The notes under the pieces are model-generated. The model had not been told where the DNA came from. It ran no database searches and saw only the letters and a program-made list of their open reading frames with translations. Shown one piece after another: positions 50,544 through 57,512 of a stretch of 64,000 nt of DNA. Position 1 is the stretch's first letter, and each line of letters opens with the position of its first letter. The translations under genes were made by a program, and so were the position numbers. The stretch is taken from the NCBI GenBank assembly GCA_026706895.1, contig JAPOXW010000030.1, positions 1 through 64,000 on the forward strand, given 5' to 3'. Source of the DNA: Gammaproteobacteria bacterium (lineage in GTDB: Bacteria; Pseudomonadota; Gammaproteobacteria; Poriferisulfidales; Poriferisulfidaceae).

Positions 50544-52220
50544 TCATATCAGGTGTATCTGCGCCATAGGTTTGCCGGTGTATGGATTCAGCATGGGTGG
50601 AAGGTTTGGAAATCGTCCGTCAAAGTATTCCTCTATCGACCAGAATTGAACACGCGGATAATTGTTCGCACCAATCTCGAACCTGCCCATGCTCTCAAAT
50701 TCCTGATACGCACTCCGTTTTCTCCTGTCCACCTTTTCGGTAGTGATGAACACACCACAAACGGCTTTTTCCCTGTCTATGGTGCATAAGAAATCTCTGG
50801 CATCAGAAGCCAATCCGCCAAGCCCTCCGCTCTTGACTTGAGCCAATGCAAGATTGAGATCATTCCATTTGTTCATAAGCGTAGCTCGCCCGTCTATTCC
50901 GCCATCGCCCACCTGCTTCTGATTTGGAACAAATCCTGGAATTTTGTTTATTGCCCATTTCTCAAATCCGAATCTGTCGGCCTCTGCCAGTCGTTTGGCA
51001 CCAGTAAGGTCTAATGGGATACCTGCTGTTTGGATTTGAGGGTCTTGCAGGCGTTCATTGATAATCAGGTCGATGGCGAAGGAGGAAATATCAACGCCAA
51101 GCCATTGCCTGTTCAATCTATGAGCCGCATCTACCGCCGTGCCACATCCACAGAACGGGTCGAGTACCACGTCTCCCTTGTTTGTGCTGGCCTCAATGAT
51201 GCGTTCCAATAATGCCCTTGGTTTTCTGGTCGGATAATCCGCAATGTTCTTAACTTCTCCCTCAAGGGATATGTCCGTCCATATGTCATTGACTTTCGGT
51301 CCTCGGTTGGCAGCATTGGCAGGGCGAAAAAGCTCTGGTGTCCCCTTCTTTGAAAATTTAATAAATCCTTTCTCATGCAATGCGTCCAATCGTTCATGAA
51401 CGCTTTCAATGTTCTTGTATCCGGGAATGAGGTTTTTCTCTATCCAGTCCGCGTAGGTTCCAGTTTTAGGAACCGACCAATGCCTTCCTCTACCTGATTT
51501 GGCAGGGTCATACCCGTGCCAAAGTTTACCCGCTTCCCCTTGTGAAATCCCTGAACCAGTCAGTGGGATAGTTCGATCTCCCTTGACGACTAAACCATCT
51601 TGATGATATTGGTTTTTCCAAGTCGCTCCTTTTTCAGCGTAAAACAATATTGAATCCGAAATGCGCCCATATCGGTTTCCATCGCCTCTTGATGTTGTTC
51701 GTTTCCAAGTGATTTCATTTTGATAAATTTTAGCCCCAAAAACATCGTCCATGACTACCTTCAAGTAGTGGCTTGCTGTAGGATCGCAATGAAGATATAG
51801 GCTTCCTGTACTTTTCAGGATGCGCCTCATTTCCGCCAGTCTTTCCGCCATATAGGACAGATAGGAAAGCATCCCGCAATCCCCTAGTACCAAATGCAAT
51901 CCGGTGACCGACTTGTGCGCCGGATGCGCCACCGCACCCTTGATGCTTTCTACTCGTTCATGTGCTTTCTCGTTCCATGTCCATGTATCTTCGAATGCCT
52001 GCAACTGGGCGGGCTTGCCGTTCTGTGTCCCGAAAAGAATGTTGTAGTTGGTATCCGATTTGAAAGGGGGGTCGAGATATATCAAGTCGATACATTCGTC
52101 CGGCCATTTCTGCATCCAGTCCAAACAATCTCCATAGTAAAGAGTGTTTGGCTGAAAATCTGATTTTCTGCGGGGGGGGGGGTCACGACACAAGCACCTT
52201 GTAGGGAATGCGCTTGCCAC
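50544..52220 (-). CDS. DNA methyltransferase fused to Mrr-like nuclease domain
   Basis: A 558-residue protein. Residues 25-400 are a beta-class N6-adenine/N4-cytosine methyltransferase: DPPF (motif IV) at 50-53 precedes the SAM motif DPFCGCG at 354-360. Residues 415-535 look like a PD-(D/E)XK nuclease of the Mrr type: GDGGIDG (D443) and QVK (461-463). One protein may thus both modify and cut DNA. The start is GTG 52220, with AAGGGA upstream, inside the end of the transposase gene. An 11-C tract at codons 13-17 precedes every catalytic motif. The target sequence cannot be inferred. Confidence 0.85.
   Translation of the reverse strand: MASAFPTRCLCRDPPPRRKSDFQPNTLYYGDCLDWMQKWPDECIDLIYLDPPFKSDTNYNILFGTQNGKPAQLQAFEDTWTWNEKAHERVESIKGAVAHPAHKSVTGLHLVLGDCGMLSYLSYMAERLAEMRRILKSTGSLYLHCDPTASHYLKVVMDDVFGAKIYQNEITWKRTTSRGDGNRYGRISDSILFYAEKGATWKNQYHQDGLVVKGDRTIPLTGSGISQGEAGKLWHGYDPAKSGRGRHWSVPKTGTYADWIEKNLIPGYKNIESVHERLDALHEKGFIKFSKKGTPELFRPANAANRGPKVNDIWTDISLEGEVKNIADYPTRKPRALLERIIEASTNKGDVVLDPFCGCGTAVDAAHRLNRQWLGVDISSFAIDLIINERLQDPQIQTAGIPLDLTGAKRLAEADRFGFEKWAINKIPGFVPNQKQVGDGGIDGRATLMNKWNDLNLALAQVKSGGLGGLASDARDFLCTIDREKAVCGVFITTEKVDRRKRSAYQEFESMGRFEIGANNYPRVQFWSIEEYFDGRFPNLPPMLNPYTGKPMAQIHLI
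52172..52182 (+). repeat. 11-base G/C homopolymer in the methyltransferase start region
   Basis: Eleven G on the plus strand (C on the coding strand), encoding D-P-P-P-R at residues 13-17 of the methyltransferase-nuclease. It lies directly after the transposase stop. No in-frame start codon occurs between the tract and the first methyltransferase motif, so a one-base length change would switch the gene off. Confidence 0.85.
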
Positions 52221-53106
52221 CCATTCCCTTCACCAGTGAATCCATGCGGTCGATTGTATCAATTTCGCAATTCCCCTCATTGAGCCGGAACGTAAATTCG
52301 TTCAAGTACCGATGCAGATGCTTCTTGCTGACATGGTGGAAGGTTCCGTTCACGCCACGCTTGAGTACAGCCCATACTGACTCCACGCCGTTTGTGTGCG
52401 CCATATCATTGACATATTCTTTCGCGCTGTGATTGACCGTGTAATGCCGATGGGCAACGCCGGTGTAGGACGGGTTTTCGTCCGTGTAGATCGTGGAGCC
52501 GGGTCGAACATTCTCATGCACTTTGCCCTGCAAGGTGGGCTTGGTGGTGTCGGCAATCGGCATGGCCTTGACCTTGCCGCCGCGTTCACGAAGTCCAAGC
52601 ACGGCCTGTTTGCCACCCCCACCACCGCCGACACGAAGTTTCTTGCTCTCATGCTTGTTGTCCTCCAACCCGCCGATATATGTCTCGTCAATTTCAACAG
52701 AACCGAACAGTTTGAAGTCTCCCTGCTGGCAAGCTTCGCGGATCCGGTGAAGCATGTACCAGGCGGTGCGCTGCTGCACGCCCAGCTCCTTGCTCAACTG
52801 GAGGCTGCTCACGCTCTTGCGTGCGGTCAGCACGGAGTAGATGGCAACCACCCAGTTCTGCGTGGAAGTCTTGGAAGCGTGCATGATGGTGCCGGTCTTG
52901 ACCGTGAAGTTTTTTCTGCACGGCTTGCACCAGTAGGTGAACGGCTTGCTCTTGGGCTTGCTGATCTTCTCGATGCCACTGCAATGCGGGCAGACCGGCG
53001 TGCCGCCCCAGCGTGCCTGTTCCAGCCATTCGATGGATTTGCGCTCGGTTGAAAACTGTTTCAGCAACTGCGTGATGCTGATGGTTTCCGCTTTTCGTTT
53101 GCTCAT
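52183..53106 (-). CDS. IS1595-family transposase (ISXO2-like)
   Basis: A 307-residue DDE transposase. It has an N-terminal zinc ribbon (C39, C42, C60, C63) and a catalytic core with D140 in VEIDETYIGG, D209 in YTDENPSY and N239/E242 in HTNGVESVW. GGAG lies about 12 nt before the ATG. The frame is intact and its stop overlaps the start region of the methyltransferase-nuclease, suggesting joint expression. Confidence 0.95.
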   Translation of the reverse strand: MSKRKAETISITQLLKQFSTERKSIEWLEQARWGGTPVCPHCSGIEKISKPKSKPFTYWCKPCRKNFTVKTGTIMHASKTSTQNWVVAIYSVLTARKSVSSLQLSKELGVQQRTAWYMLHRIREACQQGDFKLFGSVEIDETYIGGLEDNKHESKKLRVGGGGGGKQAVLGLRERGGKVKAMPIADTTKPTLQGKVHENVRPGSTIYTDENPSYTGVAHRHYTVNHSAKEYVNDMAHTNGVESVWAVLKRGVNGTFHHVSKKHLHRYLNEFTFRLNEGNCEIDTIDRMDSLVKGMGGKRIPYKVLVS

Positions 53107-53349: not shown

Positions 53350-53440
<91 letters not shown>

Positions 53441-56966: not shown

Positions 56967-56995
56967 TTGACAGCCCCGGGTGGGGGTGCGACAAT
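56967..56995 (+). promoter_or_regulatory. Promoter of the Gly-Cys-Leu tRNA operon
   Basis: TTGACA (56967-56972), a 17-nt G-rich spacer and GACAAT (56990-56995). Transcription would start about 57002, 10 nt before tRNA-Gly. Confidence 0.65.
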
Positions 56996-57011: not shown

Positions 57012-57087
57012 GCGGGAATAGCTCAGTTGGTAGAGCGTAACCTTGCCAAGGTTAAGGTCGCCGGTTCGAACCCGGTTTCCCGCTCCA
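57012..57087 (+). tRNA. glyW: tRNA-Gly (anticodon GCC)
   Basis: 76 nt with acceptor GCGGGAA/TTCCCGC, anticodon GCC in TTGCCAA, T arm GGTTCGAACC and an encoded CCA. First of three tRNA genes in the order known as glyW-cysT-leuZ in E. coli. Confidence 0.96.
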
Positions 57088-57101: not shown

Positions 57102-57175
57102 GGCTGAGTGGCAGAGTGGTTATGCAGCGGCCTGCAAAGCCGTGGACGCCGGTTCGATTCCGACCTCAGCCTCCA
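57102..57175 (+). tRNA. cysT: tRNA-Cys (anticodon GCA)
   Basis: 74 nt with acceptor GGCTGAG/CTCAGCC, anticodon GCA in CTGCAAA, T arm GGTTCGATTCC, discriminator T and an encoded CCA. It follows tRNA-Gly by 14 nt. Confidence 0.95.
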
Positions 57176-57210: not shown

Positions 57211-57512
57211 GCGGGCGTGGCGGAACCGGTAGACGCTGCGGACTTGAGGCCATTGAGTGCTCTTCGGGAAACCGGGGATGCAGAACTGCTCAAATTCGGG
57301 GAACCCTGTGAAATGGCGATCCCGAGCCAAGCCCGGGAGAGGACTTCCGGGAAGGTGTAGAGACTAGACGGGCAGCGCCTAAGGCCGGACGGCTAAGGCG
57401 AAGGGATAGTCCGGACCACAAACGCCGCACAGCGGCGGCGGCGAAAGCCGTAGCTGGTGCGAAAATCCGCTGGGCTTTGCCCGTGGGGGTTCGAATCCCT
57501 CCGCCCGCACCA
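57211..57512 (+). tRNA. leuZ: tRNA-Leu (anticodon UAA), split by a group I intron
   Basis: Exon 1 is 57211-57245 and exon 2 is 57462-57512. Joined, they give an 86-nt tRNA with acceptor GCGGGCG/CGCCCGC, anticodon stem GCGGA/TCCGC, loop CTTAAAA (anticodon TAA), a long variable arm GGGC/GCCC, T arm GGTTCGAATCC and an encoded CCA. The third-gene position after Gly and Cys is that of leuZ. The gene is functional only after removal of 57246-57461. Confidence 0.93.
57246..57461 (+). ncRNA. Group I self-splicing intron in tRNA-Leu(UAA)
   Basis: A 216-nt intron between U34 and A35, the site of the cyanobacterial and plastid trnL intron. Hallmarks: the 5' exon ends in U, the intron ends in G, and P1 pairs ACTTGA (exon-intron junction, 57242-57247) with TTGAGT (57253-57258), with the splice-site U opposite G. 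The conserved core is visible: GGTGTAGAGACTAGACGG (R/P7, about 57354-57371) and GAAGGGATAGTCC (S, 57400-57412), with CGATCCCGAGCCAAGC (P3-P6) before and a GCGAAAGC P9 loop after. It resembles subgroup IC3 introns such as Azoarcus, as I recall them. No ORF inside. Confidence 0.92.

What the first reader, a model, noticed from the sequence alone, without database searches (positions are those of the whole stretch)
57211..57512. Group I intron in tRNA-Leu(UAA) of a gammaproteobacterium
A clear IC3-like intron sits between U34 and A35, the same site as the cyanobacterial and plastid trnL intron. Its sequence looks closer to the small proteobacterial introns. I am not aware of this combination being usual in gammaproteobacteria. 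It raises the question of independent insertion versus transfer, and such a gene is easily missed or split by annotation.
Basis: partly seen in the sequence, partly recalled or inferred. Interest (0 to 1): 0.8.

Follow-up and report, generated by a model that had tools for sequence, protein, structure and literature searches.

The report
Borrowed tRNA-leucine gene with self-splicing intron
A sulfur-oxidising gammaproteobacterium reads one leucine codon with a single tRNA gene that is split by an intron of a self-splicing kind, and both the gene and the intron look as if they were borrowed whole from a different class of bacteria.

Summary
ARAGORN and Rfam at its gathering score both miss it. 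It is the only tRNA-Leu(UAA) gene found in a 98.7% complete genome, so it presumably splices; splicing was not tested here. It sits in the usual gammaproteobacterial tRNA-Gly/tRNA-Cys/tRNA-Leu array and occurs in 5 of 6 genomes of its genus. The relatives of the order that I could read have an intronless gene there.

The combination is not unknown in gammaproteobacteria: it is published for Thiomargarita and BOGUAY, and I found 15 more genomes in a class sample. New here is that exons and intron both belong to the alphaproteobacterial type, a gene that otherwise stands alone (0 of 56 loci with tRNA-Gly/Cys nearby). Best reading: the whole gene with its intron came from an alphaproteobacterium and replaced the resident gene. 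A second gammaproteobacterial contig (L191) shows the same; the same gene type rides unannotated on resistance plasmids. Exon trees support transfer; intron trees alone do not exclude a basal position.

The parts
57211..57245 (+). 5' exon of tRNA-Leu(UAA): acceptor GCGGGCG, D arm, anticodon-stem 5' strand, C32 U33 U34
57246..57461 (+). group I (IC3-type) intron, 216 nt, no room for a homing endonuclease gene; last base G57461 is omega-G
   Evidence: RF00028 E 8.6e-9; co-varying core
57462..57512 (+). 3' exon: A35 A36 A37 A38, anticodon-stem 3' strand, variable arm, T arm, acceptor CGCCCGC, A73 and encoded CCA
57242..57258 (+). P1: exon ACUU 57242-57245 with intron GAGU 57255-57258; U34-G wobble at the 5' splice site
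   Evidence: read from sequence
57286..57375 (+). P3: CUGCUC 57286-57291 with GGGCAG 57370-57375, enclosing P4-P6
   Evidence: 100% of cells paired, one U-A/C-G exchange in 15 of 43 rows
57362..57411 (+). P7 (guanosine-binding helix): GACUA 57362-57366 with UAGUC 57407-57411
   Evidence: 100% of cells paired
57012..57087 (+). tRNA-Gly(GCC), first gene of the array
57102..57175 (+). tRNA-Cys(GCA), second gene of the array, 35 nt upstream of the split gene
56967..56995 (+). sigma-70-like promoter match ahead of the tRNA array (TTGACA-17-GACAAT); consensus match only

Best explanation
This is the cell's single tRNA-Leu(UAA) gene, interrupted by a small group I (IC3-type) intron without a homing endonuclease. 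In the precursor RNA the end of exon 1 (ACUU) pairs with GAGU in the intron (P1), a guanosine bound in P7 attacks after U34, and the freed U34 attacks after G57461 to join U34 to A35 and restore the UAA anticodon (mechanism from established knowledge of group I introns; not tested here). The gene did not arise by an intron jumping into the resident gammaproteobacterial gene: exons and intron are of the type found in Alphaproteobacteria, so the likely history is transfer of a complete alphaproteobacterial trnL gene, intron included, which then took over the resident third place in the tRNA-Gly/Cys/Leu array of the window's genus. Shown: anatomy, sole copy, presence in the genus, absence of the intron in the order relatives read. 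Inferred: splicing, direction and donor of transfer, mode of replacement.
For: Anatomy and covariation. Sole Leu(UAA) gene, 36 tRNAs above the cut-off, genome 98.7% complete. Present in 5 of 6 genomes of the genus, the miss being 76% complete, always behind tRNA-Gly and tRNA-Cys. RF00028 hits in the order only in this genus (5 of 20 genomes); relatives G006 and G019 carry the ordinary GCCCGGG gene without intron in that array. Alpha-type exon 1 occurs in 10 of 368 class genomes, and the other 9 are anticodon TAG (5) or GAG (4) genes. Exon identity to the window: best alphaproteobacterium 90.6%, the 15 gammaproteobacterial trnL-intron genes 66.3-71.8%; intron identity 85.1% against 55.5-68.8%. 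Exon trees reject window genus plus gammaproteobacteria as one side: p-AU 0.0176 on rows picked by RF00028 alone, 0.00016 on the larger set, 0.042 with order relatives added. Intron trees put the window genus with alphaproteobacteria across a 100/100 branch in both samples. Synteny: 0 of 42 named alphaproteobacterial and 0 of 14 further non-gamma loci have tRNA-Gly or tRNA-Cys within 700 nt; 11 of 15 gammaproteobacterial trnL-intron genes have tRNA-Cys upstream. Second case L191: uvrC-pgsA-tRNA-Gly-tRNA-Cys-alpha-type split trnL-ccmABC, whose UvrC is nearest to members of the window's class.
Against: Holding window genus plus gammaproteobacteria together is not rejected by the intron alone (p-AU 0.396; 0.432), because the base of the alphaproteobacterial side is unresolved. 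Exons are only 86 nt and p values are modest in the even sample. The large alphaproteobacterial set was picked with a pattern from the window's own intron and so is biased to resemble it; the RF00028 set avoids this. One order relative, G018, has yet another Leu(UAA) acceptor, GGGGACG, without an intron, and in the large exon tree it lies nearest alphaproteobacterial rows, so acceptor stems do drift here. In simple pairwise alignments order relatives score 75.3-85.3% to the spliced gene over 75-85 aligned positions, not far below alphaproteobacteria. Held together, the window genus and L191 are not rejected as one clade (p-AU 0.102), so one shared transfer is not excluded. No splicing data.
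Confidence: 0.7

Rival explanations
1. The intron alone was transferred (intron homing or reverse splicing) from an alphaproteobacterial trnL into the resident gene, and the exons later drifted to resemble the donor type.
For: Intron is alphaproteobacterial-like; acceptor stems vary in the order (G018); group I introns are known to move without their exons (reviewed in PMC3984707, passages read).
Against: The exons match the alphaproteobacterial type in acceptor and anticodon stem, from the first base to the last; exon trees reject grouping with gammaproteobacteria; the intron has no endonuclease gene.
Confidence: 0.13
2. Vertical inheritance: the intron was in the proteobacterial ancestor's trnL and most of the order lost it.
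For: trnL introns are spread over many gammaproteobacterial families (15 of 368 genomes) and over alphaproteobacteria; intron trees do not reject a basal place for the window genus.
Against: The 15 gammaproteobacterial introns and the window's lie on opposite sides of a 100/100 branch; exons of the window are not of the type shared by those 15; no intron in the rest of the order.
Confidence: 0.1
3. Convergence: a resident or duplicated Leu gene of the genus was remodelled to GCGGGCG exons, unrelated to alphaproteobacteria.
For: Other Leu genes with GCGGACG acceptors exist in gammaproteobacteria as TAG and GAG genes.
Against: The window genome's own other Leu tRNAs are only 73.4-76.5% identical to the spliced gene; convergence would not bring an alphaproteobacterial-type intron.
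Confidence: 0.05
4. Assembly artefact, contamination or dead gene.
For: The window comes from a 33-contig draft.
Against: Same place and flanks in 4 further genomes of the genus, among them a single-contig one; gene intact, all stems paired, encoded CCA; no other gene for UUA, a codon used 5 times among 429 Leu codons of 9 window ORFs.
Confidence: 0.02

Closest known systems
tRNA-Leu(UAA) group I introns of Ca. Thiomargarita nelsonii Bud S10 and BOGUAY (PMC4853749, passages read)
   Same: Gammaproteobacterial sulfur oxidisers; same tRNA gene interrupted by a putative group I intron and missed by annotation
   Different: Exon and intron sequences were not compared here; no claim of alphaproteobacterial gene replacement in the passages read
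Alphaproteobacterial trnL(UAA) introns (e.g. Sphingomonas canadensis L162, Bradyrhizobium plasmid L003, phylum-sample loci L299-L320)
   Same: GCGGRCG exons, U34/A35 site, 200-250-nt IC3-like intron, up to 85% intron and 91% exon identity
   Different: Solitary gene, not in a Gly-Cys-Leu array; different class
Gammaproteobacterial trnL introns (15 class genomes, e.g. G145, G063)
   Same: Same gene, same site, mostly the same array
   Different: GCCCGGG-type exons; intron 55.5-68.8% identical, across a 100/100 branch
Cyanobacterial and plastid trnL intron (recalled; abstract of PMC4476775 seen)
   Same: Same gene and insertion site, IC3 architecture
   Different: Not compared here: no cyanobacterial sequence was fetched
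tRNA-Arg(CCU) intron of Bartonella bacilliformis (PMC7717549, passages read) and Azoarcus tRNA-Ile intron (named in PMC3984707)
   Same: Small proteobacterial tRNA group I introns; self-splicing in vitro and splicing in vivo shown for Bartonella
   Different: Other tRNA genes and sites
Rudi et al. [quoted passage not shown] paper not held)
   Same: Precedent for movement of the whole split trnL locus
   Different: Within cyanobacteria, not between classes
Vepritskiy et al. [quoted passage not shown] not held)
   Same: By recall, the same combination
   Different: Not read; details unverified

Membership tests
Group I intron | Conserved core helices P3-P8 with P7 guanosine site | tested here: met
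   full-length RF00028 alignment; P3, P4, P6, P7 100% of cells paired
[quoted passage not shown]
   read from sequence
Group I intron | GTP-started self-splicing and exact exon joining | not testable with these tools
   needs RNA
Rfam RF00028 as a curated hit list | Score at or above the gathering score of 50 bits | tested here: not met
   39.6 bits; a curation threshold, not a biological feature; many undoubted trnL introns here also fall below it
IC3 subgroup | Small tRNA-borne intron, no P5abc, GNRA loops in P2 and P9 region, branched P9 (list recalled) | tested here: met
   GAAA loops and short P5 in the drawn structure; assignment by architecture, not by a subgroup model; part of the P8 stem drawn is poorly kept (76% of cells)
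trnL(UAA) U34/A35 intron family | Insertion after U34 of tRNA-Leu(UAA) | tested here: met
Alphaproteobacterial trnL type | Exons and intron group with alphaproteobacterial trnL rather than gammaproteobacterial trnL | tested here: inconclusive
   exons yes (p-AU 0.0176; 0.00016); intron side 100/100 but basal placement not rejected
Mobile group I intron with homing endonuclease | Endonuclease gene inside the intron | tested here: not met
   216 nt; ORFs of 100 aa or more across it are mechanical overlaps running through exons and neighbours

The most novel reading that the evidence does not exclude
The alphaproteobacterial-type trnL(UAA) gene with its intron behaves as a travelling cassette: it moves between classes and phyla as a complete, ready-to-use tRNA gene, repeatedly takes over the single resident leuZ place in gammaproteobacteria (Porisulfidus and L191), appears in Acidobacteriota, and is carried on resistance plasmids, so that an essential tRNA gene is replaced while its intron hitch-hikes without an endonuclease.
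Probability: 0.35. Interest if true: 0.7.

Novelty: new member of a known kind. Interest (0 to 1): 0.45.

Why it matters
The trnL intron is the classic case in the debate over very old inheritance against lateral movement of group I introns. Here exons, intron and gene order can be scored separately, and they disagree: resident place, foreign exons, foreign intron. That makes replacement of a single-copy, presumably essential tRNA gene across classes directly testable, and shows that standard annotation leaves such genomes without any gene for the UUA codon.

Tried and rejected
Independent insertion into the resident gene: set aside because exons are not of the resident type. Dead gene, contamination: set aside. 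Intron-only tree as proof of nesting inside Alphaproteobacteria: tried, not supported; grouping with sphingomonads is allowed but not shown (p-AU 0.625, the held tree scored higher than the free one). Two pattern searches were poorly chosen and told little: ACTTAAAANC in the order and a two-mismatch exon pattern in the class; the exact pattern replaced the latter. The class and phylum RF00028 runs used stricter filters and missed the window's own genome, so their counts are lower bounds. Phage search: partial matches only, 19 records, none covering 80%. Naming the organism: Ca. Porisulfidus has no entry in the taxonomy copy; the name rests on the title of one record (L206), 82-85% identical DNA to the window over about 7 kb. 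A cyanobacterial outgroup was not obtained. G001, G004 and L206 were left out of trees as near-copies. Covariation used 43 of 66 available introns.

Full report
What is there. The window (contig C3 of a 1.69 Mb genome, 33 contigs, 98.7% complete) holds tRNA-Gly(GCC) at 57012-57087 and tRNA-Cys(GCA) at 57102-57175. Thirty-five bases on lies a gene that ARAGORN does not report: GCGGGCG...GCGGACTT at 57211-57245, a 216-nt insert at 57246-57461, and AAAATCCGC...CGCCCGCACCA at 57462-57512. Joined, the two parts fold as tRNA-Leu(taa) with loop CTTAAAA. Rfam lists nothing at its gathering scores, but the group I intron model matches end to end at E 8.6e-9, 39.6 bits against a gathering score of 50.

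The insert is a group I intron. P1 pairs exon ACUU with intron GAGU and leaves the U-G pair at the splice site; P3, P4, P6, P7, P8 and a branched P9 follow, with GAAA loops and a final G. On an alignment of 43 trnL introns (43 of 66 at hand) the drawn structure pairs in 93.0% of cells, against 27.8-44.9% when partners are slid by 1-3 columns, with 22 of 48 pairs changed on both sides (6-12 slid, 13.9 shuffled). The outer P8 and P6 pairs are less well kept: P8 as drawn pairs in 76% of cells. P1 was not in this test, since exons were left out. It is too short for an endonuclease gene.

It is needed. A tRNA search of the genome gives 36 matches over the cut-off; the Leu anticodons are CAA, TAG, CAG and GAG, none UAA. 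UUA is rare but used: 5 of 429 Leu codons in 9 window ORFs. So the split gene is presumably the only reader of UUA and must splice. This is inference; no RNA was seen.

Where it occurs. The family holds 6 genomes of one genus; 5 have the gene at 96-100% identity, the sixth is 76% complete. In the five, tRNA-Gly and tRNA-Cys precede it. One member, single-contig genome G005, is identical over 2,974 bp to record OY288106.1 titled candidatus Porisulfidus sp., which is 82-85% identical to the window over about 7 kb; Porisulfidus served as outgroup to SUP05 in PMC9123188 (one passage read). In the order, RF00028 matches only this genus (5 of 20 genomes). Intronless Leu(UAA) genes were read in eleven order relatives (G006-G010, G012, G013, G016-G019): of type GCCCGGG or GCCCAGG except G018 (GGGGACG). 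G006 and G019 have it directly behind tRNA-Cys, as in the window; in several others it lies about 1.2 kb from tRNA-Cys.

Is it usual in gammaproteobacteria? It is not unknown. PMC4853749 (passages read) reports tRNA-Leu-TAA split by putative group I introns in BOGUAY and Thiomargarita. In a class sample 52 of 368 genomes had RF00028 matches, and 15 of these 52 have one in tRNA-Leu(UAA); most others sit in tRNA-Ile(CAU), with some in Thr(UGU)- and Arg(CCU)-like genes (calls by my parser). That run missed the window's genome, so it undercounts.

What is odd. The exons are not of the class type. An exact pattern for exon 1 (GCGGRCGTGGYGNAANNGGYAGACRC) occurs in 10 of 368 class genomes; apart from the window these are TAG (5) and GAG (4) genes. 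The 15 gammaproteobacterial split trnL genes read GCCC(A/G)(G/A)(G/A).... By contrast, GCGGRCG exons with an intron at the same site are common in Alphaproteobacteria: a scan of named genomes with a core pattern of the window's intron gave at least 119 stretches, 80 shown, of which 50 parsed as trnL(UAA), 42 named Alphaproteobacteria, 4 Pseudomonadota of no stated class, 3 Acidobacteriota, and the Porisulfidus record. That set is biased by its pattern. An even sample, 398 genomes of the phylum searched with RF00028, had 31 with matches; 14 non-gamma loci were trnL(UAA), all with GCGGRCG exons, and one class member, L321, had a divergent GCCGGGG gene.

Trees. Intron identity to the window is up to 85.1% (Sphingomonas canadensis) and 55.5-68.8% for the 15 gammaproteobacterial introns; exons 90.6% and 66.3-71.8%. 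In both samples a 100/100 branch parts those 15 from the window genus plus alphaproteobacteria. Yet a tree with the window genus held on the gammaproteobacterial side is not rejected by the intron (p-AU 0.396; 0.432), because forks near the base of the other side are open. The exons do reject it: 0.0176 in the even sample, 0.00016 in the larger set, 0.042 with order relatives. These are several tests on 86 columns and should be read with that in mind.

Gene order. In 0 of 42 named alphaproteobacterial loci and 0 of 14 even-sample loci does a tRNA-Gly or tRNA-Cys lie within 700 nt of trnL (some loci are cut short); 11 of 15 gammaproteobacterial split trnL genes have tRNA-Cys upstream. So the window combines a resident place with a foreign gene. 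The neighbours look resident: the tRNA-Cys differs from that of G006 in only a few positions. Since both acceptor strands, the first and last stems of the gene, are of the foreign type, the exchanged stretch must span the whole gene.

A second case. L191 (CANGMU010000090.1, titled Proteobacteria bacterium) has uvrC, pgsA, tRNA-Gly, tRNA-Cys, an alpha-type trnL with a 243-nt intron, then ccmA and neighbours. Its UvrC matches members of the window's class best: in a 398-genome phylum sample every listed match stronger than E 1.1e-145, about 110 rows, is same class or own. Its intron falls with Mesorhizobium, Novosphingobium and plasmid rows (99/92), away from the window genus, though one shared origin is not rejected (p-AU 0.102).

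Plasmids. BLAST finds 1279 plasmid records with a match, 1266 covering at least 80%, and 625 of 5426 E. coli genomes, 577 of 656 places being on plasmids. In the four such records opened from E. coli, Citrobacter and Acinetobacter it lies by aac(3)-IId, in three of them with an AAA family ATPase gene annotated between; nothing is annotated under it. The copies tested (2) are nearest to a chromosomal gene of Enterovirga aerilata. This shows a route by which such a gene can travel; it does not show that the window's gene came that way.

Conclusion. Observation confirmed; the claim of rarity in the class is overstated; the question of insertion or transfer leans to transfer of the whole gene from Alphaproteobacteria with replacement of the resident one (0.7). 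Whole-locus movement of trnL has a precedent by title in cyanobacteria (Rudi et al. 2002, seen only in the reference list of PMC3984707). I found nothing in print on such a replacement in gammaproteobacteria in the searches, which cover open-licence papers only. This is a new member of a known kind with an instructive history.

Noticed in passing
L002 6001-6297, L004 6001-6299, L323 2501-2798, L324 2501-2799: An alphaproteobacterial-type tRNA-Leu(UAA) with group I intron lies unannotated beside aac(3)-IId on resistance plasmids; 1266 of 72,556 plasmid records match over at least 80% of the query, nearest chromosomal relative Enterovirga aerilata L172.
   Followed up: partly
L191 5115-5739: A second gammaproteobacterial contig with an alpha-type split trnL in the Gly-Cys-Leu array between pgsA and ccmA.
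   Followed up: partly
L050-L113: Group I introns in 52 of 368 class genomes, most in tRNA-Ile(CAU), also in Thr(UGU)- and Arg(CCU)-like genes; many below or near Rfam's gathering score.
   Followed up: partly
L149, L161, L173: Alpha-type trnL(UAA) with intron in Acidobacteriota MAG contigs; transfer or misbinning not separated.
   Followed up: no
L119 (G018): Order relative with an unusual intronless tRNA-Leu(UAA), acceptor GGGGACG, and a tRNA-Gly on the other strand.
   Followed up: no
window 50544-53106: IS1595 family transposase and a DNA methyltransferase-like gene next to tRNA-Ser(GGA) at 53350-53440: possible small island.
   Followed up: no
phage records LR756501.1 and NC_048021.1: Stretches 71-75% identical to the window gene in a 735-kb uncultured phage and Gordonia phage Daredevil, unannotated.
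   Followed up: no
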